DNA from: Clytia hemisphaerica
Taxonomy: Eukaryota; Cnidaria; Hydrozoa; Leptothecata; Clytiidae
Reading direction: 5' to 3'
DNA: 64,000 nucleotides
Assembly (NCBI GenBank): GCA_902728285.1
Contig: CACVBU010000743.1
Span: forward strand, 901,068 to 965,067
The position numbers and the translations under genes were made by a program. The notes under the pieces are model-generated. The model saw only the letters and a list, made by a program, of their open reading frames with translations, did not search any database and had not been told where the DNA came from. Position 1 is the stretch's first letter, and every line of letters begins with the position of its first letter. Of this stretch, positions 8,441-48,721 are shown piece by piece.

Positions 8441-9469
8441 AAACTTTGACGTTTATTAGAAAATCAAGGTCCAAGAAATTTTTCTGCTACACGACATTGC
8501 TACTCTCTTGGTAAAATTAGTCAATTCTTTCCAAAACACAATTTGTTGCAATATGGTTTTGGTTTTCAAACATGATATTGAGACTGTGTTTTGAGAGGAA
8601 ATGGAATCCAAGTTAATCTCAACCAAGAGACAAGACAAGACATACACCTTCCCAAAAACGGGAATAGGCCCTAACCTAAGTCAGAGAGCACTGCACAATA
8701 TACTACATAAACTATAAAAATAAATAATGAAAATAAATAACTAAAGAATAAACGACTGCTATTAAAATAAAAATCAACTTCCACCATCTCAGTCTATCAG
8801 AGGCAATCACATACCAATTACATTTATTAATACCAGCTTTTTTCAAACATCTACCATATGTAAACTTTGGACAACCTCTGGGCCTTTTAGATCGAACCGA
8901 ACATTTTTCTCGGTAACCTTTCCCACGACATACGCATTACATGCCCAGCCCATTGTAATTACTTTTTTACAACATACAAATCAATCGATTTCAAAGATAA
9001 CTTTTTGAAGATATAACAACGTCATCCCTTTCCTTCCAAGCCCGAAAGCGATTGGTGTGACACATAACACGAACACATTGATGATGAAATCTCGATAATT
9101 ACTTTAATAACTTTTCTGTAACACACCAACATTTAGCACCATACAAGAGTATGGGCAAAACAAAAGAAGAATAAACTTTTCCCTTTGTGACATGATCGAC
9201 ACTACATGATCTGAAAATCCATTTCTCAGTGCGCCGAACGCATTTCCCGCTTTACGAAAACGTGTTTCAATCTCGAGGTCATCCGTACCATTTGTTGTAA
9301 TGATACTTCCTAAATATGCAAACGATTGGGATGTATCGGTTATTGGTTAAAATGATGTCAGAGAAATCAGCTTTATCGTAATCTTCTCGCGATTCGTAAA
9401 GAGAATGTACCTTGGCACAGAAGAGCAATTCAGTTTTTGAGCTTTGACGAGGCTCTGTTACTCCGGTGT

Positions 9470-10500
9470 GGATTTTCTGTACCAAAGCGAGAAAAGTGGT
9501 GAACTAGTGATTGCGTCTCAACAACAGCATCATGACGATTATCGAATACGATTGCAGTATCATCTGCATATTCTGAATCAAGCAACGAAATTGGTTCTCC
9601 ACGTGCTTTGAACGATCTACCTGTCATTTGAGCTTCATTTTTTGTCATGAATACACAAGGAGTGGCAGAACATTTTATTCTCCAACTACTGATGGTTGCT
9701 GTGATGAAGAACGTGAAGAGCATGGGGCCTAGGAAATTCCCTTGTTTAACACCGATACTATTGTTAATGGGATCAGTTATGAAGTTGTTGTCGATTTTGA
9801 CTGCAAATGTCTTGTGTTAGGAGGTTCACAAGTTTAGGTGGCACACCGTACTTCAGTAAAATGCCCCATAACAATTTTCTGGGCACTCTGTCAAACGCTT
9901 TGACTAAGTCAAGAAATAACACCCACGACTCCAGTCCATGCTCACTCCTTTTCTTAATTGCGGATTTGATTGTGAAGACAGCGTCAATGCAGCCACGTTT
10001 TGGTCGGAAGCCGCATTGTTGCTCATGATCTAGTTGCTCTTCTATCGGAAGCAATCGGGCGTGTAGAATGTTAGCAATGATTTTGTATGTAATCTCTTAC
10101 AACATTATCCCACGATAGTTTTTGGGTAGTGATAAGTCACCTTTCTTTGGGAGTACAATCAGTCGACCGATGTTCATCAGGAACTATTTCTGTATTCCAG
10201 AAGTTTATAATGATATGTCGTAAGATGATACGAGTATCCGGATGATTTAACAACGCTTTTAGGGATTGGGACATGATTCCTGTTTCACCTGGTGCATTAT
10301 TTTTGAGCTTGAGCGTAGCTTTTTGGATGGAGGGTGGTCATATTCTTTGTGGACAGGGTGTTGGGAAATTTCGTCTAGCACTGTGGGATCGTACGTGCCT
10401 TCTTGATCAAAAAGATTCTTGAAGTGGTTATAAAAAACGTTGGCGTTTTCCTCGGGTGTTTGACATGTAGAGCCATCTGGCTTTTTCATTTGTTTTTGTA
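9470..10500 (-). pseudogene. LINE reverse transcriptase remnant
   Basis: Minus-strand fragments in order: a linker with KPDGSTCQTPEENANVFYNH (about 10,480-10,420) and a 'NNAPGETGI' type motif near 10,290; RT fingers/palm with CGFRPKRGCIDAVF and LDLVKAFDRVPRKLLWGIL (about 10,020-9,860); then the catalytic SEYADDTAIVFDN (about 9,590-9,530). RT copies LINE RNA at a nicked target by target-primed reverse transcription. The frame is interrupted between the palm segments (stop at 9,773; frame change by 9,723), so no active enzyme is encoded. Confidence 0.8.
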
Positions 10501-15676: not shown

Positions 15677-16930
15677 TTATCCAAGGAAATTGGCGTTCAA
15701 TAGATTGTCCTCATTCACGACCTCGTGACCATTGATAATTTCAATACATTTATAATACACCTCTAGATATTTGTATACATCCAAACACGTTTGATCGTGG
15801 AAAAAGAATTTGGTGCATCTGATCTCACACATGGTCGTTCCTTCACAAGCATCCTTGACTTTGGTCAAAAACAATGGAGTTGTTGGGCAGTATTTGTTGG
15901 CCACCAAGTTTCCTGTGTGTTCTGTACATAAACCGAAGTTTCGTCGACCCCAGAAAGCTGAGATGATGGAAATATGTTTATATTCGTTGCAACGTAACCA
16001 TGCAGTGTCTTCTTCGCATTTGACTGTACCGTTCTGCAAAAAAACAAATCAAGAAATTTGTTATTATTTGCTTATGATGATCCATGTAAGTCTAGAACAA
16101 TATTTTTTTATTTTATAGACGCGCACAGATCTATACCAAATAATATTTGATCATATGGCAAGACACATTGTTAGACTTCATTCAATGTGATCAAGGAAAT
16201 TCAATAATGATGTGATGATTTAAGAAGTGTGAAATATACTTACATATCTGATAGGTGTTGCACCAGCATTTCCATCTCTACCAGGGGGACCAGGTGGACC
16301 AGGAATACCAGGTTCACCACTACCTCCTGGCCATCCAGGGGATCCAGGGAGACCACCAGGACCAGGGAGACCATCCATACCAGGTAAACCAGGAGAACCT
16401 GGAGGTCCTAAGAATCCAGCACCCCCTGGGATACCAGGTGCACCTTGAAGACCTGGCTCACCAGGCATACCAGGTGAACCAGGGTTTCCAGCCATACCTG
16501 GGTTACCATCATGTCCAGGTGGACCTTGAAGACCTTTGAGGATGAAACCAAGTGTTACATTCTGATCTTTTAACAATTTGTTCAATAGCGGTGGGACGGG
16601 TGAAACTGGTAGTGACAGCTGAAATAGGAGAACAGAAACGGATATCAAACATGATTCTTTTCAACTAATTCATTCAAAATGAACTTTTAATTAACAAATT
16701 TGTGTTAACTTGGACATAAATATTTTTCTAAAGAAAAGCTCTCGTCAATGAAAGGAAATTGCTACTTCAAATACATGCTTCGCAGTATCGTATAAGATAA
16801 AGATCCTTCCAAATCTACATGATTGGCGTTAATTTAGCAAACCAACCTTACGTACCGTATTATATGGCAAGGTTACAATAATAAAGGCTATTGGCAATAT
16901 CCATAAAAACATTGATTTATATGTTCCCAT
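15677..16930 (-). CDS. Secreted collagen-domain SUEL (rhamnose-binding) lectin, locus A
   Basis: Three exons join in phase 0: 16,856-16,930 (signal peptide, [19 protein letters not shown]...), 16,244-16,618 and 15,677-16,033, giving 268 aa. Residues 26-53 end in [11 protein letters not shown] with an N-glycosylation site. Residues 54-146 are 31 uninterrupted Gly-X-Y triplets. Residues 151-246 form a SUEL/galactose-binding lectin domain with nine Cys, the FWGR block (YGR motif of the family) and the [14 protein letters not shown] end. The predicted product is a secreted triple-helical oligomer with carbohydrate-binding heads, collectin-like in layout. Splice sites seen: ACG|gtacgt, TAT|gtaagt, tttcag|CTG, ttgcag|AAC. 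The stop codon overlaps an AATAAA on this strand. It lacks the basic C-terminal tail of the copies at 40-44 kb. An alternative first exon lies at 17,695-17,757. Domain call is firm; ligand is inferred from the family. Confidence 0.85.
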
Positions 16931-17694
16931 CTCCTAAGAGGCTGTGCCCTCTGTTTGGAACATTTATCAAAATAGCCAAAAAACAATAAGTCACTATAAA
17001 TCTTTTTCTCTCGATGGCGATATTTTATTATCCTTCTACTGTCAACAGTAAAAGACTTGAATAACTCTTCTTTCTTAACAATCGATCAACCAGTGATGCG
17101 ACTTTAAGTCATCCTGTTCCATTCTTCAAAAATTGGCCATTTACAAAAAATTCAATTAAGGCTAAAACCACCAATTTTGTTCAAATTTAGCCTTAACTTT
17201 TTTTGGTGTAAAATTTCCCCCTTGAGAGAAGATTTTTTTTCAAAATTTCTGCTTGAAATTTTCAGTTTAAAATTCAGCATGATATAAATCATGCATGAGT
17301 GATTTAGTTATAAGTGCGTGTAGTTTATTCATTGTATCCACCTATTTGTTTTGAGCAAACACTTGTTTTGTGTTCTGTTCTCGGGAACACCTCTTTAAAA
17401 TGTATTTAAATCCTTCTTAGCTAAAAAAACGATATTATGTTCCTTTAGGAATCTTATTAGAATATGATCGTAGGATTTGGAAAAAGATTATCGAGAAAAT
17501 ATGTATATTTTTTCTTAACTTTTCAAAAAAAAAAAAATTCAGTTTTATTTTATTGCTAAAGAAATTAATTGCCATTTAATAGGAACATCAAGGTTGGTTA
17601 ACCAGAAAAAAGTGTTTTCAAAACAAGTAAACATAAAACACAAACGAACAAAACAAAACAAAAATTAATTAAACAACAATAAAAATTTAATTAC

Positions 17695-17757
17695 CGTATA
17701 ATCAGCTATCAGGATTATCCCCAGTGTGACTATAACGATCGAAGGTAGTAACCTCAT
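17695..17757 (-). CDS. Alternative signal-peptide first exon for the locus A lectin
   Basis: On the minus strand, ATG at 17,757 opens 21 codons, MRLLPSIVIVTLGIILIADY followed by Thr, ending ACG|gtaatt. It is hydrophobic, ends in the same codon (ACG) and phase 0 as the 16,856-16,930 exon, and lies about 0.8 kb upstream of it with no other body exon between. It could splice to the collagen exon at 16,618 in place of the proximal signal exon, or belong to a lost paralogue. 'aatacag' lies four bases before the ATG, a candidate acceptor. Confidence 0.55.
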
Positions 17758-31993: not shown

Positions 31994-34900
31994 ATGAGGA
32001 TGAGAACACTTATTTCGAGTAAGCCAAATTTCGCGAAAACATGGAAAAAGCCAGCAAGTATAATCGAAGAAACGGTTGATTGTAACAATGTAGTTATGCA
32101 ACCTAAAGTTGCGTTTGTGGTAAGGAAGAAACATATTTAATTTTGAAGCGAGATAGATATGTTAAGTAGGTTTGCGACCGCAGTCGAGGTCGACCCAAAG
32201 GCTCTCTTTTCTCTAGCTATCTACCCGAAGGTAGGATTTCTCCACTTACTCTTAGGTGCCAAATAAACGGGGGGGTTGGAAAATTTTCGAAATTTTAATA
32301 AACGGGGGGTACCTAATTGCCGGGGGGGGTTGGAAATTGTACTTCTGAAACCCCAAAAATAAGGTAAATATAGGCTAAAATCAGGCTATTAAGAGCAAAA
32401 TAAGGGGCCTTCTCTTTGACAGCTGAAAATATTCTTAAGAATTAATAAACGTGGGGGTCCTTATAAGGTCCGGGGGGGGTTGGAAAATTTTCGAAAAATT
32501 AACAAGCGGGGGGGCCCGTTTATTTGGCACCTAAGAGTACCCTCCACCATCTTAGGAATCGTTGGTATGACCCGACTGCAACAACCTTGCGCACCGTAGC
32601 TAGCTGGATGCTCTCATTTCATACTAAAGACTTTTAATTTGATGATTCTGGCGTTGAAAAACCAGTACTGTATTTCAAAGTTTTGGCTGAAAAAAAATAT
32701 ATATTCTTTTGCCATTTTTACTGAGAAAATTGAAGGTCGCAATGAAGCTGCCTCTCATCATAAATCTGTATAAATGCGAACTCAAAACGGAAGTTTGATT
32801 TGCAAGAAATACAGAGGGATTCGATTCGTAGAAACAGTGTTGTAATTTTTCCAGTTGAAACGTTGAATTTTCGAACATAGATTTCGAATGCTGCAAACTC
32901 GAAATTCTAGAGGAAGGGGGGTTATGCTCTATGGATAATACTCTGGCGGCGACAGCTTTTTCAAAACATTTTAAAAACAATATATTTTGGCGTTATTTTC
33001 TTTCACTTGACTTGACGTCATCTTGCTTCAAATACGTATAAAAAACGGTGGCACTGAATCGTGGGGGACTTGTATATTATGACGCAAGGATCTCTTTTTA
33101 TAGCTTTATTTGTAACTCAAATTTCATGTTTCTGTTTGCGTGCGTGCTTGTAAGCCAAATGGGACCCCGGGCCCACAATTATATTCACAGTATATTGGTT
33201 GCTATGGTAACAAAGTAGCCCTATGCCGTAAAGGAAATCTGAAACACAAAAGAAACTGTTTACGTTTTATAAGAGATAATAGCTTGTCCAATATACTGCT
33301 TTATCTTATTAATGGGGCACGGGACTTCTAATTACCCCGTTGCACAAAACTTGTTTCATTAAAGTGCACAAATAGAATAATTAACGCGAATTACACGTTT
33401 CTTTTTTATAAGAACATAACGCTTCGACGGCCAAAATGTTAAGAACAAGTTAAGAACATTTTAAGGCTTTGTGGACTCGAAACACTCGATTTCTTAGGAA
33501 AATGGGTAAAAATGGTCAAAAATTGGCTAAAATAAGAACATGTTAAGAACATTTTAAGGCTCGAAACCTAAAAAGTTAATAACATCCAAAAGCTTCAACA
33601 TTTTTGGATGTTCTTCTAAAAAAACGTGTACACATAAGAAATATTTTTCACAATATTTTTCTTCCTTGTTGAGTTTTGATTCATAATATCTGTGACAACT
33701 TACCCAGTACGAACGTGAAAAGTTTTTTTCGAATTGCGCTAAAAGATGAAAAGAATACGGTATTTTTCTCGGAACAAGAAAAGTGTGCCATTATGGAAGG
33801 TTAGTCTCAAAGGACATAAATTTTGGACAATTTTAGCCTCTCAGTGTCGAGGAAGAGAGAGCTTTAAATCTTGTGTTCAGGGCCTAAAGAAGGTCACTGT
33901 AGTGTTTTGCTGTTTGACGGGTTGAGGAGGAGATCTAAATTGGAAAATCACTCAAAATATGTTTATCACAGAATTAAAGACTGCATAAATTACCGGCTCA
34001 GAGGTAGCCCGGGTGTACTTGCTTAATGATCATTGACTATAGAAAATGAATTTCGGGTCTTTCATTTTTCTTTTTCTTTTTTTTTTCAGAACATGATCTC
34101 ATCGGAATGTTCGTCTCATTTCATTGCTGCATACCACGATCTACAACAAAGTAGTTGGGAGCCCAGCATCAACGATCAACAAGCCAGCAAAGATGGTGAT
34201 GGTGCTATACGAAAACAAAGCAAAGATGAGGTCATCAACGGTGCAGTAATGATTAAAAACATCGAGAATATACCAGTCATTATCGGCGATTTAAAAACAA
34301 CCAATCAGAATCCACAACGTGAAGAGAGCACCGATGACGTATTTGACAGTGACGAAGATACTTCTAGTCGTAAAGACCAGCCTTTAGCTTCTTGCGATGT
34401 TCCTTCGTTTTGGAAGAAAGACATGCGAGATCGTCGAACGTCAATCAATGCCGATTTCCTATCCCCCATACGTATGGATCGATTAGATCGCTCACACAGG
34501 CGAGCGTCTTTGAACCCTGAAGGCTTTCAGGGATTGCGAGTGTTATCAGCTCAATTACAAGATCAACGCTCAAATGCGTCTAGTCGTAGTGAGAACTCAG
34601 TGATGGGATTTGATAGCGAGTACGGTGGCAGCCAATCAAATGACAGCAGTGACAATGAAAGCGAACCGGAAGACAAAATCGATTTCCAAAACATTACACC
34701 ACAATCGAACGCTCTGTTGCAACGTCGGCGCCGGTTAAGTGGCGTCGACCCACCACCGGATCCTAAAATGCTAACCGCCCATCAATCAAAGGTAGGAGCC
34801 CTGAAACCGCCCCTAACGAATCGACGAATGAGCGTAGATACCTATATGGGAATGAATGAAAAAACTGACAACAGTAGACCATCGCGTCGATTTTCAGTGA

Positions 34901-35319
34901 TGACTAAAAAGACGAATTTACCGAAAATCGAAACTGGTGGATATTTAGTGAACCAAAACACTTTGAAAACTGGCTCCGTTAGGCCAGTACCTGAACGGCG
35001 TAGTAGCGTCTCCCCTTCGAATTTTAACCATGATGCCCCAGTTAGAGACGTGCGTTTGAATAGACCAATAGACGGGCAACTTGTGCGCCGTGCTTCTAGA
35101 GTAATATCAAAGGTTGAACAAGACTTGATTGAGAAAGAATTAAAATTTCTGGGAATTACTAAAGACAAGAAAGACCCTTTGGCTGATATTCGAAAATGCC
35201 GTTATCTAAGAATTAACCATGACCCTAACAATGATGATAAATGCCCGTGTAATAAATGTGAAAAAGAAAGCGGCACCTTTTCGCCGAGATCTCGGTCACA
35301 TTCCGGTTCCACTTGCTGA
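31994..35319 (+). CDS. RRxS-rich disordered protein with C-terminal CPCNKCE module (paralogue 1)
   Basis: Main exon 34,091-35,319 follows a strong polypyrimidine acceptor (tttttttcag). A candidate first exon, 31,994-32,119, starts ATG with A at -3, stays open for 42 codons and ends GTG|gtaagg in phase 0, in frame with the main exon. Joined length is 451 aa; starting instead at the ATG at 34,093 gives 408 aa. No known family recognised. It is Ser/Asn/Asp/Arg-rich without TM or signal. Seven RR-x-S kinase-type sites lie at about residues 160, 182, 259, 290, 311, 347 and 378 (PKA/AGC consensus). The end has RRASRVISKVEQDLIEKE, then IRKCRYLR and CPCNKCEKE, a possible metal-binding Cys cluster (C...CxCxxC). 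Paralogue 2 lies 1.1 kb downstream in the same orientation and shares this C-terminal module. The intron holds foldbacks at 32,247 and 33,391. Scaffold or kinase-substrate role is inference. Confidence 0.7.
32247..32539. repeat. Foldback element with GGGGGGTTGG words
   Basis: Ends tactcttaggtgccaaataa followed by 'acggg' mirror each other. The interior has four 'aataaacggggggg' or 'ccggggggggttggaaa' blocks in direct orientation, all derived from the arm sequence. A related fragment 'aataaacggacccccgttt' lies near 54,575. It is located in the intron of paralogue 1. Confidence 0.8.
33391..33632. repeat. AAGAAC-family MITE in the paralogue 1 intron
   Basis: Left 'ttacacgtttcttttttata' plus 'agaac' and right 'gttcttctaaaaaaacgtgt' are inverted copies. 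The inside contains 'cgacggccaaaatgttaaga' and twice 'gttaagaacattttaaggct', the family hallmark words. Confidence 0.8.
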
Positions 35320-36459
35320 TGGTATCGTATGATTCGTTGGTTAATGTTTGAAATAGTCATTTTCGTTCTAGAAAATTCACCTAAAAAGTTAGTTGTCAAA
35401 ATTCTGAATTATTTCTCAGGTTAACGTTTTTAGAAAAGTCTTTTAAAATCTAATACGTGACTGCTAGTTTCACACTACTTTCAATTCTTTTTTTTGAAAA
35501 AACTCAAGGGCAGAAAGAGTTCCCTAATATCCCGCAGTTTTCAATTTTAAAGCCTTTTTATGATCGGAACTTCAACAAGTCCTTTTTCGTTGCTATTCTC
35601 AATCGTGCCTTATTTTGTACTAAGGAGATAATCTAAAGACAATACTCCTTCCTTAAAATCAACTGGGCTAGTAGGATAGAAACCTCTGCACATTTATCTT
35701 TCATTCAAGTTTATGTAAAAACGTTTGTATATTATTTTTGTTGTATGTTTTTTGAAAAAGGTAATTTGTGACTTGCTTTTTTGTAAAATATATGTCAATA
35801 TCGGAATGTTCGAAATATACGCTTGGTCCAATATCGGGATTACTGAAATCAAATTTCAATGCCTCAAGCAAGCCCCTACTTTTTTTCGAAGGGAAGCATA
35901 ATAAAAGAGAATTGCTCTTCCAGCAATGTGTTTTTGAAGCCCTTTAAATAATCAACTTCACAATTGGATTTGAAGTTATACTTTTATTGTTCGGTTTGTT
36001 TTTGACCTTTTTTCACTGATAATATTTTGCGTTTAAAATTTCAAAACAGTCAGAGTCTAATTGGGTATCAATGAATTTTACTTCATGCTTCTAATCTACA
36101 TCTTTTTGTTTCGATCCATTGAAACTGCTGGTATGTTAATAAGAAGTTTTGTAAATCCTTTGTAAAAATAGAGAAAATGTTTCAGTTTTAGTATATTTCA
36201 GATAGCGATTGTTTTCTTAATCGTTGTCGAACATTTTTGAATTTCTGACATGATATATTTCAACCTTTTGGACCATCAATTTTAGTGTTTTTAACAGTAT
36301 TTGGTATCCTATCGTAGTAGACTGTGGTCTGACTCCACAATACATCGTGGATGAAGTGAGAGTGTTCTGGCTTTTTTCCCTAGTGTTTCAAGCCGGATCT
36401 CTTCATCAAATGTAATAAACCTCTTCTCCTCTTAGCAAAAGTAGAAAACTATATAAACC
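35320..36459. other. Intergenic spacer between the CPCNKCE paralogues
   Basis: AT-rich 3' flank of paralogue 1 and 5' flank of paralogue 2. An AATAAA occurs near 35,885 and another near 36,414. 'ctcctcttag' at about 36,427-36,436 just upstream of the ATG at 36,460 could be a splice acceptor. No further exon seen. Confidence 0.5.
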
Positions 36460-37203
36460 ATGACTAGTGGAAGAAGGCAGTCAACAACACATCAAGTTGG
36501 TGAACTACTATCTCTTCGCAAAAGCAATGACCAAGAATATCATTCTTCACGAACCAGGAACAGATCAAACCATCTCAAACCTCCGGTACAAACAAATTTA
36601 TCAACTAAAGTGAGCCGAAATCAAGGCCGTTCAACCAAGGAGACAGATGGCCACACAACCAAAAAGAAAAAGCGAAGCGGCGAATTTTCATCCGTTTATA
36701 AGTTACCTAAAATTGAGAACAAATATCTTATCAATCAAATGCCTTCCTTGAAGAAAACCAAAACTTTGAGTAATTTACAAGTTCAACGTCCTCTTTCGCC
36801 ATTACCAGAGCCTTCGTTACCATCATTGTCTCCAGGGGCAACTATTACCGTGGAAACAACAGAGAGACGTCGTTCATCAAATAATCAGTTAGCACCTTTA
36901 CTGCTAGATAAATCAACCGAGCGGCGACGATCGTCAAATTTTGCGGCACCTCCGCCACTAGATGTCGCACAACGTACTCGTCGCACATCCATATTTGATG
37001 GGAACCTGAGAAGAGCTTCCAGGATCATTGATCGCTTCGAACAGGAATTGATTGCTAAAGAAATGGAAATCCATTCAGGGGAAAATATACCAGAAAAGAA
37101 CATTTACGAAGAAATAAAGTACTGTCGATACATTCGTCGTAGAAATGAGCACGAGGATAGTCCCTCTTGTCCCTGTAATAAATGCGAAAAGCCGCTTTTT
37201 TAA
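36460..37203 (+). CDS. RRxS-rich protein with C-terminal CPCNKCE module (paralogue 2)
   Basis: Single coding exon of 247 aa. The ATG at 36,460 (A at -3 context 'aaccATGA') is preceded by an in-frame TAA nine bases upstream, so this start is secure. It shares three blocks with paralogue 1 in order: LPKIENKYLINQ (LPKIETGGYLVNQ in 1), an ERRRSS/RRTS/RRAS-rich stretch, and the end RRASRIIDRFEQELIAKE ... IKYCRYIR ... CPCNKCEKP. It is basic, Ser-rich, with no signal or TM segment. The second gene lacks the long acidic Ser/Asp region of paralogue 1. Cys spacing (CRY then CxCxxC) is conserved and could bind zinc; function unknown. Confidence 0.8.
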   Translation: MTSGRRQSTTHQVGELLSLRKSNDQEYHSSRTRNRSNHLKPPVQTNLSTKVSRNQGRSTKETDGHTTKKKKRSGEFSSVYKLPKIENKYLINQMPSLKKTKTLSNLQVQRPLSPLPEPSLPSLSPGATITVETTERRRSSNNQLAPLLLDKSTERRRSSNFAAPPPLDVAQRTRRTSIFDGNLRRASRIIDRFEQELIAKEMEIHSGENIPEKNIYEEIKYCRYIRRRNEHEDSPSCPCNKCEKPLF

Positions 37204-38601: not shown

Positions 38602-40047
38602 TCATGAAATGGGATGACAGCATTTTGCATGAGCCTCTCAGAAAACGATTTGGCGTTATTTTCGAAAATAGAAAAAAAGAATTATTTTAGCGAGGCAGCA
38701 ATTTTATTTTTAGCAAATTTTAGCCAAAATAAATTCTAGTCAAAAATAGTTCCCTTAAAGGCTCTCACTAATATTAAGTTATTTGACCGTACTGACTTTT
38801 TTTGGTTTTTGTGGATTAGGCCCTAAAAAACTTCATCAAAAATGGAAAAAAATTAAAATTATTTCGAATATGATAACAAAGCTTGATTTTGACTATCGCA
38901 AGCTTAAATAAACCTAAATAAGACCAAATTTCATCGAAAATCTTCATCTAGTTTCTGAGATTTTTTGTCAATTCCAAAAGGAGGAGACGGGATTAATTTC
39001 AAATTTTACCAAATTAATTTCTACACTCTTTTTTATATAAATCTATATAGTAAGGGATGTCACTGCACAAAATTTTACAACAAAAACACAAAATTCCAAA
39101 AAATTTAAAAAAATATAACTTCATAAAATACAAGAGTATATTTTTTTTGTAAATATGGAATAATAATTTATCAGTTATAAAAATATCAAATTTTTACTTT
39201 ATAAATGCATATTCTTTGGGTGTGTACCCCGTATGGTTTTTAGTCCGTCCATTCTGAACTCATAAGGGATAACGAGGGCACTCAAAGTCACATTTTTCAA
39301 AAAAATATGTAAAAAAATATTATATCAAATTTTGCTATAAAAATTTGTAAACTATCATATCTGTAAAGAAACTTGTGTTTGTCAAATTTATTGTTTTGGG
39401 TTTCAGTTTTGAAGATATGTACAATTGAAAAACGATACTTTAAATTGCCCAGTCTAAAATTTCCTTATCCTCTGACCACCATCTCATCGCAATAAACAGC
39501 GACTATGAAATCCTGAAATTCCGATTTCTGTTTTTGTTGATGAAATTTTGCGACTTTAGCCAAACAAGAAGGGTATAACTAAGATGTAGGACAATCTACA
39601 GTATCCTTTAAGCTACTGTACTAGTATTTATTGCTTTCTCCCGCAAATAGGAAGATGCTTGATTTACTGTAAATTTTGGCCGAGGAAGATGATAAAGAAT
39701 TGCAACGTTTGCTTATGCATATAGAATAGTTCCCAGTATTTTCATAACAAAATAGAATATAAAATTCATAGAAAAATATATTGTTTAGTTTTTAAACTCT
39801 ATAACTTGGAGACATAGCAAGTAATATGGCCTAATCTAAATATTACACCACACTTCTCTACCGTCGATAATATTTATACTGCTTTGAGCAAAAAATAAAT
39901 TTTGCTGATCCATGGTTTCGATGATACACCATAAAGTTGGTTCTATTAAGTCCTGTAAAAAAAGTCTTCAGAAGTTTTGTTTTCGTCAAAAAAATAGAAA
40001 GTTTTGCGCGCATGGACATTTTGTAGGAGAAAGTGAGAGAGTTCTAT
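38602..40047. other. Non-genic 3' flank of the lectin cassette
   Basis: AT-rich sequence with no coding exons. A minus-strand AATAAA lies at about 39,627-39,632, roughly 415 bp past the lectin stop codon; 'ttttagcgagg' fragments near 38,685 echo the 37,374 element. Confidence 0.45.
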
Positions 40048-41120
40048 TTATGAATCCCTGAAGGATCGCTTCTCTTTGGTGTCACGCTTCTTCTTTCGTC
40101 GTCGGCGACCGCCTTCTTTCAAGACGTCCATGCTGTTCTGCTGGTCAGCCTCGCATTCGTATTTCACTTTCAAATATTTATAAACGTTTCCACAACTGTT
40201 ATCGTCAAAGAAAATATTGGAGGCGACAACTTCACAATTTTGTTGACCTTTGCATTGTGCATCGACCTTTGTGAAGGCATTATCACTGTTGGCGTCACAG
40301 ACTTCACGGCTCAGACCGGCCGGTGTATCAGAACAGGTAACGTGGTCCTCACGACCCCAGTATGCTTCTTTGATCTTGATCAATTCGTATTGTTGACACT
40401 GAATCCAAAGTTTTTGTCCTTCGCATGCAACAGTGAACTCCTGAAAAGTTGTTTGAAAAGAAAATGCTAGAATTTTGGTTACAGTATGTCTAATTGTTTC
40501 TTTAGTTAAAAATAGAAAACGAAATGTCTGAAATGCTAGATCGATTAGTGCAAGATTGTAAAGTTTTAACCTTAAATCTAATATCTCCATAGCCAAAATA
40601 CAATCCTGGTCGACATCCTGTTTAAAGGCGGTAAAAGTTTTCATCGAAGAATGTTGACAAAGAACGTTTTTTTCTTACTCACCGGTTTGATTGGTTCAGG
40701 TCCTGAATCTCCAGCTGATCCCTGTGGTCCAGGTAGACCAGGGGCACCAGGCAGACCGGCGGATCCAGGTAAACCTGATGGTCCTGGATCTCCTTTCTCT
40801 CCTGGGTATCCGGGCATACCAGGGCCTCCAGATAAGCCTGGTGGTCCCATTGGACCAGGGGCACCATCTTCACCAACGTGTCCAGGGGCTCCTGGTGCAC
40901 CGGGTAAACCTGGGGCTCCTGGTTCTCCAGATGGTCCTGGTGGTCCTGGAGGACCTGGTGGTCCGTTAAGTCCTTTTAAGAAGAATCCGAGAGTCAGATT
41001 CTGTTCCAACAGTTGACTGACCATCAATTGATCGAGAAAGGGTTGTGTGATTCTGTCACCAATCTTTGGCCAATCTGGAAGTATTCTATTCATATCTCCT
41101 CCCATTTGCATCTGTGTTGA
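40048..41120 (-). CDS. Collagen-domain SUEL lectin, distal cassette of locus B
   Basis: Two body exons, 40,683-41,120 and 40,048-40,440, with phase 0 borders (acaacag|TCA, CCG|gtgagt, tttcag|GAG). Spliced to the signal exon at 44,169-44,234 the product is 298 aa. Residues 23-71 contain [20 protein letters not shown] and [11 protein letters not shown]; residues 72-164 are 31 Gly-X-Y triplets; residues 169 onward are a SUEL lectin domain with eight Cys, EAYWGRED and [12 protein letters not shown]. The end is [19 protein letters not shown], a basic stretch with furin-like cleavage potential. No own signal exon was found between 41,121 and 42,108, so use of the shared exon is inferred; an internal MQMGG start would lack secretion. 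Nearly identical to the proximal cassette over long stretches, so a recent duplication or gene conversion. Confidence 0.8.
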
Positions 41121-42108
41121 CTGTTGTTTTTGAAAAGTAAAGAAAAGGAGAAAATAATTAATTTCGTTCGATTCTTGATTGAATTCAGTTTATACATTTA
41201 TTTATCCACTACTACAATAGAAATATAGTTAGAAATAATACAGGAGAAGCATTCTAAGTCCTTGTTAAAGTTGTTAATTCCTCAAAAATAAATTAGTTGG
41301 AAAGATATTTTCATTGTTTGTCATTGATAATTTAGTTTTATGTCAAATTTGAAATTACAAATATATGAGGTCTTGAAAACAAAAAAAAATAGGAACACAA
41401 AAAAATATAATGGTCTAAAATTCTCTAACAACTAGATAAAATGACTATGATTTAATGTGTGAGTGGATTATCTAAAAGACTTATGATTTTGAGTGAATAA
41501 ATGATTGTGGTGTATGAATGGTGGATGTGATTGAGTGGTGATGATTGAGAGGAGGGTGGAGGGTGGTTACGCCCTTTTATTTGATGCGATCGATGGTGGT
41601 CTTGACATTCTACCATGACCTTAAAAAACTCTAAAATTCTTGAAAATAAAGAAGATGTTTATGGCTTAACTGTTAATTTGATATTACAAAAATTGGTTTC
41701 AATCAACTTTGCATTTAGGAAGTTGACCTTATAAAACAAGACACTCTGCCCTCTAGAATTATCTGTTAAGAACACCATACACCTAAGGTTGGAATCATTT
41801 CATAAATTGTTAAACTAAAATATTATATATACAGGTCTTATGTGAAAAAGCTTTATTGTTATAAAAAATTCGTGGGAGCTCGTCTTTCTTTCTTGTCTTA
41901 CTCTCTCAGCAATGTCGTCACCTTTCTGCTCTTCTCTGGCAATAACTGAGAAACACCAACGTTGTCAGCAAGTCAATAATTTGATCAAAATCTCATCCGC
42001 AGATTATTTAGTTAATTGTCTATAATACATTCTCTGCACATGAAACTTTTTCATTTTACTGACTAGATGGTTTTTTTGTATTAGAATTTCTGGGTCATTG
42101 ATTTTAAT

Positions 42109-44234
42109 CTAACTATCTCGAAAAGATCTTTTATCCTTGGTTGCACGCTTCCGTTTACGCCGTGATCCGTACGTATCTTCCGTGCCCGGACTGGAGTCGG
42201 GTACACATTCATACCAAATTTTCAACACTTTGAATATATTTCCACAACTGTTATCATCAAAGAAAATATTGGAGGCGACAACTTCACAAGCCTGTTCGCC
42301 TTTACATTGTCCCGCAACTTTTTGTTTGGCATTTTCACGATTTCCATCACAAAATTTGTCAGCTACTAAACCGTTTGGTGCATTTTGACAGGTGGAAGTA
42401 TCATCTCGACCCCAGTATACATCTTTGACTTGGATATGGTTATATGTTTTGCAATCAATAAGCAAGCGTTCACCTTCGCATTTCTCTGTGAAGTTCTGGA
42501 AAAGAAAAAGATATATCAAAATATACTTCCATCATTCTTCATGTATAATGAATCCAAGAGTTATCATCAATTTTGCCCTCAATCAAGTCAAAACTAGAAC
42601 TTTGGCGTATAAGTTTATCAAAATAATTGTATGAAATCAAAATCTAAAAGATGCCAGATAAAAATGCAAGATAAATCTGATTAATGACTTCAAAATGAAA
42701 TTCTTTTAAATTAGGGTAAGAATCTACAAAGTATTCACCTCTGGTTTCAGTTGTACTGCAACATTATCACGGGTTTCTGCAACCAATCCTTCAGGACCAG
42801 GTAAACCAGGAGCACCCGGAAGACCTGCAGATCCAGGCAAACCAGTTGCACCTGGATCTCCTTTCTCTCCAGGGAAACCGGGGACACCAGCAGAACCCAA
42901 TGGTCCAGGAGGACCCATTGGACCAGGAGCACCATCTTCACCAACGTGTCCAGGGGCTCCTGGTGCACCGGGTAAACCTGGAGGACCAGGTTCTCCAGGG
43001 GAACCAGGTGGACCAGGAGGACCTGGTGGTCCATTTAGCCCTTTCAAGAAGAATCCGAGCGTCAGATTCTGTTCCAACAGTTGACTGACCATCAGTTGAT
43101 CAAGAAAAGGCTGCGTGATTCTGTCACCAATCTTTGGCCAATCTGGTAACATTCTGGCTTGTTGTTCTTGCTATAATGGATAAGATTTTGGCATTGTTTA
43201 TCGATAATCAGATATCATTTTGGTTGTCGATGTCTTTGTTGAGTAAAGTTTTTCTTTTCTTGTACGTAGGTTTGTTCCAGTTCCTTGTCTTGTCTTCTCG
43301 TTTGTGATTTAGTTTCTCCATTTTCGGAGAACGGTCGTATATCGTCTGGTCTGGTCTGGTCTGTTTTTTTTTGTTACGTTCAAATACTGTTATCTTGTTT
43401 AAATACTGTTATTCTGTCTCTCTGTCTGTTCTATGTAAATTCTATGTTCCGTGTTTTTTAACCCTTGCTATCTTAACGACTAATTAAGTTTCGGTTCACT
43501 GGAGTTTATAAACCAAAGGTCGCAAATACGCAATCTGCCAAATTTCCCCAATAAAATCTATATACATATAGAGTATCTTGTTTTATAAGTGTCTAAAGCC
43601 GTTAAAAACAAAAAACAAAAACCACAAAGAGAATTTACAGATCTGTGTATGTTATTTTTCAGGTGCTGTTTTGTAAATACCTCAATGTTGGTGTCATGGT
43701 CAAATCTCAATGGTGGTCAGTGAATGTAATGTGATGGTAGATGTGTAAAGATATTGTCAAGTGATGTGATGTTATGTTATGAGTAAAAGGTATGTGTTTG
43801 TTATGTTGTAAATGTAAAAAAGTTAATTTACACACCCTAGTCTTGTCAACCTTAATCTCATTGAAACAAGGTCTGGGTCCAAAAGAATTCGGTATAATAC
43901 CATAGACTAATTTCACTTTAGGACTTTAGTAATTCAATGAGTATCAAATTAGCGTGTCTTAACCGTGGTTTTCTTAATTAGATACAAAAATGCAAGACCC
44001 TTTTTGGAGATAAAAGATAAGTTTTCAAAAAGAAAAAGATTGCTTCTTGAAGATAAAAATGGTTTTTGGAAATGGAAAATATTGAGTTTTGAATCTATCT
44101 AGGATATCGAAAATAAAGACGAAGAAAAGTTTTTAAAAGAAAAAATTTTTAAGAATGAATTTACTTACAGTTTCTTGAACGCCGAAACTCAAGACGGCAA
44201 ATAGCAGGCACACAAGGCCTTGAGACCAATGCAT
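42109..44234 (-). CDS. Collagen-domain SUEL lectin, proximal cassette of locus B
   Basis: Three phase-0 exons: 44,169-44,234 (signal, [20 protein letters not shown] then ET), 42,739-43,170 and 42,109-42,495; 294 aa. Splice sites: ACT|gtaagt, attatag|CAA, GAG|gtgaat, ttccag|AAC. Residues 29-65 hold [18 protein letters not shown] and [11 protein letters not shown] with an N-linked site. Residues 66-152 are 29 Gly-X-Y triplets, then a short linker. Residues 167-262 or so are the SUEL domain ([34 protein letters not shown]). The tail [17 protein letters not shown] matches the other cassette. Expected to be secreted and trimeric, binding rhamnose/galactose-type sugars by family analogy. A minus-strand AATAAA lies at 41,852-41,857. 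Confidence 0.87.
44169..44234 (-). CDS. Signal-peptide exon, probably shared by both locus B cassettes
   Basis: Twenty-two codons with a hydrophobic core ([14 protein letters not shown]), ending ACT|gtaagt in phase 0. The ATG is preceded one base upstream by 'tttttttctcgtaccttag', a strong acceptor-like sequence. Both downstream cassettes begin in phase 0, so either can be joined. It is the only signal-like exon visible upstream of either cassette within 41-45 kb. Confidence 0.7.
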
Positions 44235-46212
44235 TCTAAGGTACGAGAAAAAAACAATGTTATTTTTATGCAAAATTATAGAACCTGAATCCTTCATCAT
44301 AAAAAAGCCATGGCATTGAGAAAATATAATTTTACAGGGGGTGAAATATCTTGATTGTTATGTATTTCAAGGAATATTTAGGCTAGAAGAGGTTGAAGTT
44401 GAAGTTTGTATTCAATATAAATTTTATTAAAGTTTGACGGGAGTTTGACCCAATGATAAAAACAATTCTACCAGAAGCCAAAATGATTAAAGCAGGACAG
44501 GTAATAAATTTATAATAATCTTTTAACTATGAGCTGGGAAACCAAATCATCGAAAGTAACAAAAACATTGGCAATCGAATCCGATCAAATGAGAAAAATA
44601 ATATCCCAAAAAAAAATCCATCAATACAACCATCAAAGTTAAAATAAATGCCAACTTACTTTATAAATTTTAATTTTCTATACAATATATACACAAGAAG
44701 ATATTAAAACAAGTTATGTCAAAAGAGACAAAACCAAAAGCCCCAAAAAATTAATTAGCGATGTTAATTATTTTGGGCTATGTCTGTCTATGCCTCCCTT
44801 CGCATGCATTCAAAAAATTAAAGTTTTTTTCTTCAATAATGGAAGCATAGCATGAATTCAACAGTAAACGCTAATAGCTTGTTTTCATTTTCACCACTGA
44901 CAGAATTCGATTGAGAAAAATTCGAATGATTTAACAATAGAATTCTATTGAAAGCAGGTGGCTCTATTGATTAGATCATCCCGTTAATGAATTGGAATAA
45001 TTCAGCTCTATTTTGTCTTCCTTTGTTTTGATTGCTATTGTTTATTAACGACAATAAAAAAATTTCAAAACAAACTTCAAAACAAAGCTCACCTCGAAGT
45101 TCGATAGATTATTTTTATAGTTGACAATCTTAAAAACTCATCAAAATTATTCACCAAGTTATTTTTTTTAAGCGAACCAATCTTTTCTTTTTTTGAAATC
45201 CTTCACTGATACAATTTTCTGTTTGATTCGTTGCGCATTTTTCAGCCAATCGGAAGCTACTGTTCTATAAACAATTATGCTTAACCAATACACACTTTCA
45301 GCATAATTCGAACAATCTTATTATTTCAAAACATTCGATTTCAAAAAGGTTTCAAAAAGACACAAAAACCTTGAAAATACAAAAAAAACAAAAATTACTA
45401 ACCTTTTACAGTATAATTTACCAAGTTAAAATAAATCTCAATTTAAAATAAATGAAAGTTTCGCTAAATTTCCATTTGCCGAAAAAGCCGGTTTTCCCTG
45501 ACATTCGAAACCGCACGCTTGTTTTGGAAAAAAGAAACTGCACTACGCATGCGCAAGGAAACAAGCTCATATTGAGCACAAGCAAATGATCTCTAAAGTG
45601 GTCTGTTTACGCTTTCTCATTGAGTATTGTGCAAAGAAACTAATAGACCATGCTAAACAACTAATTAGTTTTTCGAACGTTTTGCAAAAATTAGTTCGAA
45701 CACAGCTGCCATTTTTTAATGTTTTAAAAACAACATAAACAATCTTTTGTTTAGTCTCTTTAAAAAAAATTATTGCAACAAAAATATATAGGGGCTTCAA
45801 TGAAGATTTTTTGATCTTTTTAATAATTTGTTTTATATAGTGTTCAAACACTGTTTACTTTGTATCTTCAAATTCAAATATTTTTTTTCCAAACTATTGT
45901 TTCTGCTAGAATAAGCGTCTCAATAAGAGGTCTTAATGAGTCTGGAAGCAACCTATAATCTTTTTGTAAAACTCATTTCTTAACTTTTTTTCAATTTCAT
46001 TTCATTTTCCACTCGTATTGTACCTTAACACCATACTAAGAATTTTCACACAGGAAAATACACAATTGTTTTTTCCTGAGGCATAAGCATCCTATAGTCG
46101 GCCCCTTTTGAAAGCTGGCCCTTAGATTTGCGTTATTTTTTCGTCGCTGGCGTAATAAGGGTCGGCGTTTAAACGACCCCACCGGCCCACTATAAAGGCA
46201 TTCTGGTGGGGA
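44235..46212. other. Upstream region of lectin locus B
   Basis: AT-rich, no coding exons recognised on either strand. 'cttcgag|gtgagc' on the minus strand near 45,090 is a possible 5' UTR exon donor. A small hairpin-like GC patch (ggcccc...ggccc) lies at about 46,098-46,195. Confidence 0.4.
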
Positions 46213-46985: not shown

Positions 46986-47827
46986 AGTTAAGATTGAAGG
47001 TTCCCCTCTATCCTTTATCAAGAAGAGTACTTTAAAAAATCATCACCAAATTGACCAATCACGGTCTCAAATCTGATCATGACGAGTGAAAATGTTGAAA
47101 AGAAAATATCGTTAAACCATTTACAAAAGATATTTACAGATTTAAAAAAAAGTTCACTCTCAGTTCCCAAATTCTACAATCTAAATTGAAGTATTATTGT
47201 AATAGGTATATGTTTTGGTTTTAAAAGCCTTTTTCGTAAATATTTGAAAGTTCTACTTGCCTTGGGATTTCCCGTAAATTAGAATTTACTTCTTATGATG
47301 GTGAAAAGGCGTTATGAAAGTCCACAAAATACTGTAATTATTTTAATGCTATTTCTCTTCAGGGGATTTATAACAGTACAACAGATAGAAAATAGCTATT
47401 AATAGAGTAATCATCAATAATTAATTTTCCAGGAAATTAGTTCATGTACATTGGCTATCTTTGCAATCTTCTCTATTGATAAGGTCAATGATACAATCTC
47501 AAAAGAAATTTTCAATCAACGTAAATCAAAATATTTTAGTTTTGTATGGGTTTCGAAATTTTGTCAATTTGTAAAAAAAAACATCTAGCTCGAAAGATAA
47601 AGTACTTAAAAAACTACTTTAAGGTTTTTTTTTTGCCTAAAATTGGATCAGCTCATTACTGAGAGGTGCTAGTTAACTTCAATTAAGTTTTTTGAAAGTC
47701 AGTTACAATACAAAATACAGTATGGCGTTCTGATTCTAGGTTTAGAACACTATGGAATACAGAGATTATCATACAGGTCACGAAGAGTTAAAGCGAAAGA
47801 GAATATTCTTGGTCACAATATAAGGCT
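46986..47827. other. 5' flank of the 7TM receptor gene
   Basis: AT-rich with no exon seen. 'caatataaggctttgtttc' directly precedes the ATG at 47,828. No TATA box could be chosen with confidence. Confidence 0.4.
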
Positions 47828-48721
47828 TTGTTTCATGCAATGACAAAACCACCACTTCGCCGTTTCTTCGGGGTTTTAAAACCTACCAATGCCGCCTTAA
47901 TACCAATACGCCAAAATTCAACTTCACCAGACAAACTCCACATTTTCACTATCATCCGTTATGCTGACTCAGCACTCATTATTCTGCTCAATTTGATCAT
48001 TTTTAGCTTTCTGGTGTATCACAAGAGACGACCGTTATATCGGAGTTCGACCTACCTTTTTTTAAACCTACAGTTAGGACATATCATTATGTCATCTCTG
48101 ACATATCTCAAATTGGACACAGACATTGTTATCTTCAATAACGCACTGTTGCTACAGATGTTTCTCTGCATGTTGATTTCCAACAAAGACCGATATTCTG
48201 TCATCCTCAACCCTCTCGTATGGCAATCAAAAACTAAAATTATGACGCTGATCGTTGCTTCTTGGTTATTTTCAGGCTCCTTTGCTGCAGTCATCATTTG
48301 GTATTTCCGGCACCGTATCTTTATCCTATATTGCTGCATGGCAACCATTTTGGCTTTTTCAATCATCGTGTTAACCATTTTGAATCTTAGAGTATGGTTG
48401 CTAGCCCGGCGTCACCGAAGCGATATCATACGAAACATGGTTGGCTCGCACACCTTAACCGAACAAAGACGACGAAAACAATTAAAGAAATCTATCATTG
48501 GGTTCCTTATGATCGTAGCAACTTATGCGATATTTTGGACACCCTCATTGGTGCATATTCTCCTACACTTGTTTACGGACGGCTTTTATGCGCATGTGTT
48601 TGACCCATTCACTTTTGCTGTTGAAATGATTGGAATGTGTAACGGGATTATCGATCCAATCATTTTTGTGCTTTTCAACAAAGATGTGAAGCGAGCACTT
48701 TGCCGAAAATTGAAGTGCTGA
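47828..48721 (+). CDS. Rhodopsin-class (class A) 7TM receptor, intronless
   Basis: 297 aa in one exon. Seven hydrophobic segments start near residues 43, 75, 102, 139, 168, 220 and 258. Class A hallmarks: DRY at 121-123 (NKDRYSVILNP), a TM4 Trp (ASWLFS), FWTP at 236-239 in TM6 (CWxP equivalent), and NGIIDPIIF at 272-280 in TM7 (DPxxF in place of NPxxY), then a basic helix 8 ending RKLKC, a possible palmitoylation site. The usual TM3 Cys (3.25) is absent, replaced by Asp, and the loop between TM4 and TM5 is very short. These traits recall MECA-type receptors such as melanocortin receptors; ligand unknown. TM2 has NLQLGH, where Asp 2.50 would be expected. The N terminus is short and without signal peptide. 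AATAAA lies at 48,812. Confidence 0.85.
   Translation: MFHAMTKPPLRRFFGVLKPTNAALIPIRQNSTSPDKLHIFTIIRYADSALIILLNLIIFSFLVYHKRRPLYRSSTYLFLNLQLGHIIMSSLTYLKLDTDIVIFNNALLLQMFLCMLISNKDRYSVILNPLVWQSKTKIMTLIVASWLFSGSFAAVIIWYFRHRIFILYCCMATILAFSIIVLTILNLRVWLLARRHRSDIIRNMVGSHTLTEQRRRKQLKKSIIGFLMIVATYAIFWTPSLVHILLHLFTDGFYAHVFDPFTFAVEMIGMCNGIIDPIIFVLFNKDVKRALCRKLKC

What the first reader, a model, noticed from the sequence alone, without database searches (positions are those of the whole stretch)
40048..44234. One signal-peptide exon and two collagen+lectin cassettes
Both cassettes start in phase 0, both end with their own stop, and only the exon at 44,169-44,234 looks like a signal exon. The locus could make two secreted lectins by choosing which cassette is spliced to a shared leader, a compact way to diversify a collectin-like recognition molecule.
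Basis: partly seen in the sequence, partly recalled or inferred. Interest (0 to 1): 0.75.

Follow-up and report, generated by a model that had tools for sequence, protein, structure and literature searches.

The report
Nematogalectin gene with two cassettes
This is very probably the known stinging-capsule gene nematogalectin of a jellyfish relative, in which one secretion-signal exon can be joined to either of two copies of a collagen-plus-lectin unit, an arrangement already described in Hydra.

Summary
The anatomy is real. On the minus strand lie one signal-peptide exon (44169-44234) and two collagen+lectin cassettes of two exons each: proximal 42739-43170 and 42109-42495, distal 40683-41120 and 40048-40440. 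All are phase 0 and give open frames of 294 and 298 aa. No substitute leader was found between the cassettes. The lectin is not C-type: both cassettes match Collagen plus SUEL_Lectin. This is the published nematogalectin plan: leader, conserved region, Gly-X-Y, gal-lectin, basic tail, introns after the leader and before the lectin. In Hydra, A and B come from one gene by alternative splicing of tandemly duplicated exons with the signal peptide shared. The splicing idea is thus supported by precedent; no RNA was available. The collectin idea is not supported; the likely role is building the nematocyst thread. Extras: excess synonymous identity between the collagen exons, perhaps gene conversion; a CAY-rich tract before each cassette; a second collagen+SUEL gene at 15.7-17.8 kb with two candidate leaders. 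Species not identified.

The parts
44169..44234 (-). Leader exon E1: signal peptide [22 protein letters not shown], ends phase 0 at donor GTAAGT; an acceptor-like ...ctcgtaccttag ends one base before its ATG
42739..43170 (-). Proximal cassette exon 2: conserved N-terminal region plus Gly-X-Y collagen; its acceptor has the fewest pyrimidines (14 of 27) of the seven acceptor sites compared, one of which is hypothetical
42109..42495 (-). Proximal cassette exon 3: SUEL lectin domain, basic tail, stop
40683..41120 (-). Distal cassette exon 2: conserved N-terminal region plus Gly-X-Y collagen
40048..40440 (-). Distal cassette exon 3: SUEL lectin domain, basic tail, stop
41852..41857 (-). AATAAA after the proximal stop (possible poly(A) signal of the proximal transcript; two more AATAAA begin at 41581 and 41202)
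39627..39632 (-). AATAAA after the distal stop (possible poly(A) signal; others begin at 39392 and 38708)
41421..41620 (-). CAY-rich, G-poor tract upstream of the distal acceptor; 20 YCAY in 200 nt, 12.3 expected from dinucleotide shuffles (0 of 2000 reach it); function not shown
43681..43800 (-). CAY-rich, G-poor tract in intron 1 upstream of the proximal acceptor; YCAY not above dinucleotide shuffles (334 of 2000 reach it); function not shown
43570..43589 (-). Arm of a 20-nt RNA complementarity (19 Watson-Crick pairs plus one G-U) that would loop out the proximal cassette; weak evidence
41728..41747 (-). Partner arm of the above

Best explanation
The locus is a nematogalectin A/B-type gene of a cnidarian, probably a medusozoan. 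One promoter and one leader exon serve two tandemly duplicated two-exon cassettes. Splicing the leader to 43170 and ending at a poly(A) signal after the proximal stop gives one nematogalectin; skipping to 41120 gives the other. Both would be secreted into the growing nematocyst, trimerise through Gly-X-Y and bind glycan through the SUEL domain, as structural proteins of the capsule thread. Shown here: predicted exons, phases, domains, the single leader found and the duplication. Inferred from published Hydra and Nematostella work: alternative splicing, nematocyte expression and thread function.
For: Exon models are open and in phase. Collagen plus SUEL lectin in both cassettes; for the distal lectin exon, rhamnose-binding lectins are the best PDB matches (5h4s 8.1e-27, CSL3 3.3e-22). 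A single leader found. [quoted passage not shown]
Against: No RNA, proteome or expression data were seen. The species is unidentified, and cnidarian origin is inferred from the gene family itself. No published nematogalectin sequence could be aligned, so neither orthology by tree nor an A/B label was tested. [quoted passage not shown] Of the 41 other SUEL matches in the genome (44 in all, 3 in the window) only the flanks of 8 were looked at; none had a collagen stretch, so a further nematogalectin elsewhere is not excluded.
Confidence: 0.9

Rival explanations
1. Only the proximal cassette is expressed with the leader; the distal one is a dead or orphan duplicate.
For: No leader of its own found for the distal cassette; no RNA evidence.
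Against: The distal cassette is fully open with predicted splice sites, has the higher SUEL score (73.4 versus 61.5 bits), and its acceptor has the richer pyrimidine tract (19 versus 14 of 27). In Hydra both are expressed (passages).
Confidence: 0.04
2. The distal cassette is a separate gene with its own promoter or a spliced-leader trans-splice site at 41120 (operon-like), made without this leader.
For: Hydrozoans are recalled to use spliced-leader trans-splicing; a search for it returned two papers (listing only). An ATG lies shortly after the 41120 acceptor.
Against: Such a product would begin [14 protein letters not shown] (sequence), without a signal peptide, which fits a secreted collagen-lectin badly; 41120 is phase 0 like the leader; no signal-like exon was found in 41121-42108.
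Confidence: 0.04
3. A collectin-like immune recognition lectin diversified by splicing.
For: Collagen plus lectin architecture.
Against: SUEL domain rather than C-type (distal); match to the nematogalectin plan, including the basic tail and intron positions.
Confidence: 0.03

Closest known systems
Nematogalectin A/B gene of Hydra (Hwang et al. 2010 PNAS; primary paper not held; known here from passages of citing papers)
   Same: Shared signal peptide, tandemly duplicated Gly-X-Y plus gal-lectin exons, alternative splicing; introns after the signal peptide and between collagen and lectin; basic C-terminal tail
   Different: Species unidentified; splicing not observed here; which cassette is A and which B is not determined
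Nematogalectin-related genes (PMC4195985, passages)
   Same: Collagen plus gal-lectin with the same two introns; the second gene at 15677-17757 in this window fits this plan
   Different: The finding's locus has two cassettes and a basic tail; the neighbour has one cassette, no basic tail and two candidate leaders. The label nematogalectin-related for it is inferred, not tested by a tree
NSP2 / nb012a and nb012b of Hydra (PMC6134521, passage)
   Same: Another nematocyte gene in which a shared 5' exon is spliced to exons that probably arose by tandem duplication
   Different: Different protein family
Rhamnose-binding lectins such as CSL3
   Same: SUEL/RBL domain
   Different: No collagen part and a different role (recalled)
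Collectins (collagen plus C-type lectin, vertebrates; recalled)
   Same: Collagen followed by a lectin domain
   Different: Lectin domain of another family

Membership tests
Nematogalectin | Signal peptide on a separate first exon | tested here: met
   (hydrophobicity and donor scan; SignalP was not available)
Nematogalectin | Gly-X-Y collagen domain followed by gal-lectin (SUEL) domain | tested here: met
Nematogalectin | First intron after the signal peptide, second between collagen and lectin | tested here: met
   models against the description in PMC4195985; splice sites predicted, not seen in RNA
Nematogalectin | Conserved region before the collagen and (often) a lysine-rich basic tail | tested here: met
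   [33 protein letters not shown] in both cassettes; tails [17 protein letters not shown] and [19 protein letters not shown]. Match to published letters was not tested
Nematogalectin | Falls in the nematogalectin clade of a tree | not tested
   no published nematogalectin sequence was at hand
Nematogalectin | Alternative splicing between cassettes A and B | not testable with these tools
   no RNA; phases permit it
Nematogalectin | Expression in nematocytes, protein in nematocyst thread | not testable with these tools
   -
Collectin | C-type lectin domain after the collagen | tested here: not met
   Pfam at E up to 0.001 gives SUEL_Lectin and Collagen only
SUEL / rhamnose-binding lectin domain family | SUEL profile over the curated cut-off | tested here: met
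   (cut-off 31.4 bits; 61.5 and 73.4 found); distal exon aligned to 5h4s and CSL3

The most novel reading that the evidence does not exclude
The cassette choice is set by intronic RNA signals that can now be named. A CAY-rich tract stands about 400 and 570 nt upstream of the distal and proximal cassette acceptors and could be read by a YCAY-binding (Nova/KH-type) splicing factor in nematocytes, perhaps helped by a 20-nt RNA pairing (43570-43589 with 41728-41747) that loops out the proximal cassette and brings the leader near the distal one.
Probability: 0.12. Interest if true: 0.55.

Novelty: new member of a known kind. Interest (0 to 1): 0.3.

Why it matters
It shows that raw sequence alone exposes the nematogalectin plan, and it corrects the functional reading from immune recognition to the building of a stinging thread. 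If the organism is a tractable medusozoan, the locus lets one ask how nematocyte types choose between cassettes, and whether the exons are kept alike by gene conversion; PMC4195985 suggested some level of concerted evolution for medusozoan nematogalectins (passage).

Tried and rejected
Collectin reading: rejected on the domain family (distal).

A hidden second leader for the distal cassette: not found at lax settings. The first scan, with a stricter donor threshold, missed the real leader too and was discarded.

Looping RNA pair as a strong result: rejected as strong. The two arms are the only matches to their pattern in the window with up to 3 mismatches (0.02 expected from shuffles), but 14 of 280 background tract pairs from 20 arbitrarily placed 10-kb pieces of this genome score as high, some probably transposon inverted repeats (inference). 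Its genome-wide count was not obtained.

YCAY tracts: the motif was picked after reading the sequence. Of 384 four-letter patterns of equal degeneracy, 6, mostly variants of CAY, put their two densest places of the window one in each tract. The CAYY threshold was set at the observed value. One background place (L018) is denser in YCAY (16 per 100 nt) than either tract. The proximal tract is not richer in YCAY than its dinucleotide content predicts. A paper search for Nova, YCAY and Nematostella gave one paper, seen as a listing only.

Bacterial-type promoter scan is irrelevant to an animal gene and was not used.

Other tandem SUEL pairs of the genome as further nematogalectins: 4 loci (8 of the 41 matches outside the window) looked at; no proline-bearing run of six or more Gly-X-Y triplets in them.

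Species identification through GFP homologs, a genome-wide search for the conserved exon-2 region, and a genome count of the inverted repeat: not achieved, because the search machine did not answer.

Full report
WHAT IS THERE. The window lies in a 417-Mb genome of 951 contigs (C517:901068-965067), with 34.9% G+C in the window. On the minus strand, 44169-44234 encodes [22 protein letters not shown] and ends at a donor GTAAGT in phase 0. The proximal cassette is 42739-43170 (432 nt) and 42109-42495 (387 nt). The distal cassette is 40683-41120 (438 nt) and 40048-40440 (393 nt). All predicted boundaries are GT/AG and phase 0. Leader plus either cassette is open: 294 and 298 aa. The proximal acceptor's AG belongs to an in-frame TAG, and no signal-like exon was found before the distal cassette, so either product needs this leader to be secreted. 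A scan of both strands for ATG-to-donor exons with a hydrophobic core gave 16 rows, some sharing an exon. The leader had the highest core score (3.41); the next (3.23 and 3.22) are two leaders of a neighbouring gene. At very lax settings one weak candidate (45517-45570) lay upstream of the leader, and none between the cassettes or in intron 1.

WHAT IT ENCODES. Pfam finds Collagen and SUEL_Lectin in both cassettes and nothing else at E up to 0.001. PDB sequence matches of the distal lectin exon are rhamnose-binding lectins (5h4s 8.1e-27, CSL3 3.3e-22, CSL2 1e-17) and latrophilins; the proximal exon was not sent to that search. It is therefore not a C-type lectin, and the comparison with collectins fails at the family level. 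Both proteins share a conserved region before the collagen and a basic tail ending KRSFRDS.

IDENTITY. PMC4195985 (passages) gives the canonical nematogalectin as signal peptide, conserved region, Gly-X-Y, gal-lectin, often a basic lysine-rich tail. [quoted passage not shown] The locus meets each of these points. [quoted passage not shown] PMC3269628 (passage) names Hydra and Clytia and the nematocyst tubule. The primary paper, Hwang et al. 2010, is not held; what I know of its abstract beyond these passages is recall. [quoted passage not shown] In Nematostella A and B are on different contigs, so a tandem A/B gene points to a medusozoan; this is inference, and the species is not identified.

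HOW IT LIKELY WORKS. The leader is spliced to the proximal acceptor, whose pyrimidine content is the lowest of seven acceptor sites compared (14 of 27; one of the seven, before the leader's ATG, is hypothetical), or to the distal one (19 of 27). An AATAAA begins at 41857 after the proximal stop, with two more before the distal cassette (41581, 41202); others begin at 39632, 39392 and 38708 after the distal stop. Phase does not enforce exclusivity: E1-P2-D3 (296 aa) and E1-P2-D2-D3 (442 aa) are also open. The proteins would be secreted into the nematocyst and take part in building the thread; PMC9205923 (passages) reports nematogalectin in the thread, and abnormal capsules and no thread formation after knockdown of a Nematostella nematogalectin-like gene.

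AGE AND HOMOGENISATION. The collagen exons are 113 of 140 aa identical, the lectin exons 71 of 127. The short introns, 243 and 242 nt, gave only weak matches (best E 0.083), and so did the tracts upstream of the cassettes (best E 0.12). Yet the collagen exons share 73 of 110 degenerate same-residue codons where codon usage, estimated from these same genes, predicts 45.1; the lectin exons share 40 of 70 against 31.9. As controls, the neighbour gene against the proximal cassette gives 29 of 64 against 25.6 and 21 of 33 against 15.7, and against the distal cassette 28 of 66 against 26.4 and 15 of 37 against 16.7. So the excess in the collagen exons stands out, while that in the lectin exons is of a size that also occurs between old paralogues. 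The longest run of identical codons is 17 in the collagen exons (permutation P 0.011) and 10 in the lectin exons (P 0.011). An old duplication with later partial gene conversion of the collagen exon fits this, and PMC4195985 suggested concerted evolution for medusozoan A and B. A recent duplication does not fit the unalignable introns; constraint on the exon DNA is not excluded.

POSSIBLE SWITCH SIGNALS. The densest YCAY place on either strand of the window is on the minus strand upstream of the distal acceptor (13 per 100 nt; 14 with a finer step), and the next minus-strand place is in intron 1 (9 per 100); with the finer step a plus-strand place at about 61935 also reaches 9. In 20 arbitrarily placed 10-kb stretches of the genome, 400 kb counting both strands, one place reaches 9, and that one reaches 16. 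For CAYY at 12 per 100 nt the background has none and the window exactly two, one in each tract. Cautions: the motif and threshold were chosen after looking (6 of 384 patterns, mostly variants of CAY, behave so), and only the distal tract exceeds its own dinucleotide shuffles (20 YCAY against 12.3, 0 of 2000; proximal 9 against 7.1, 334 of 2000). A 20-nt complementarity between intron 1 and the stretch after the proximal cassette would loop that cassette out, but 14 of 280 background pairs score as well. These are leads only.

GENOME CONTEXT. The genome has 44 SUEL exon matches, 43 over the cut-off, 3 of them in this window. Four other tandem pairs (8 of the other 41 matches) were inspected and have no Gly-X-Y run within the fetched stretches; the other 33 were not inspected. 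The third window copy belongs to a second collagen+SUEL gene on the same strand (15677-16033 and 16244-16618), about 33% identical to the proximal and 35% to the distal lectin. It is plausibly a nematogalectin-related gene; PMC4195985 reports nematogalectin-related followed by nematogalectin A in the same orientation in Sphaeromyxa (passage).

VERDICT. The functional idea is replaced. The arrangement as such is published; this is a further instance of it. What would be new is confined to the weak regulatory leads and to the neighbour gene's two candidate leaders.

Noticed in passing
15677-17757 (minus strand): A second collagen+SUEL lectin gene (16244-16618 and 15677-16033) with two candidate phase-0 signal exons, 17695-17757 (MRLLPSIVIVTLGIILIADYT) and 16856-16930 ([25 protein letters not shown]): two leaders and one cassette, the mirror image of the finding.
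   Followed up: partly
40683-41120 and 42739-43170: The collagen exons of the two cassettes share more synonymous codons than codon usage predicts (73 versus 45.1 of 110) and a 17-codon identical run, while the introns are unalignable: a hint of gene conversion.
   Followed up: partly
41421-41620 and 43681-43800 (minus strand): Paired CAY-rich, G-poor intronic tracts, one upstream of each cassette acceptor.
   Followed up: partly
44236-44250 (minus strand): An acceptor-like sequence ends one base before the leader's ATG, suggesting a 5' UTR intron or a spliced-leader acceptor.
   Followed up: no
34030-35319 and 36457-37203 (plus strand): Two neighbouring long open frames of 429 and 248 aa whose C-terminal parts look alike by eye (CPCNKCEK) and that have no Pfam match: perhaps a tandem pair of unknown family.
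   Followed up: no
47792-48721 (plus strand): Open frame of 309 aa matching the rhodopsin-family GPCR profile 7tm_1.
   Followed up: no
9430-9816 (minus strand): Reverse-transcriptase-like fragment with a weak, sub-cut-off RVT_1 match; neighbouring minus-strand frames to about 11492 may belong to the same element.
   Followed up: no
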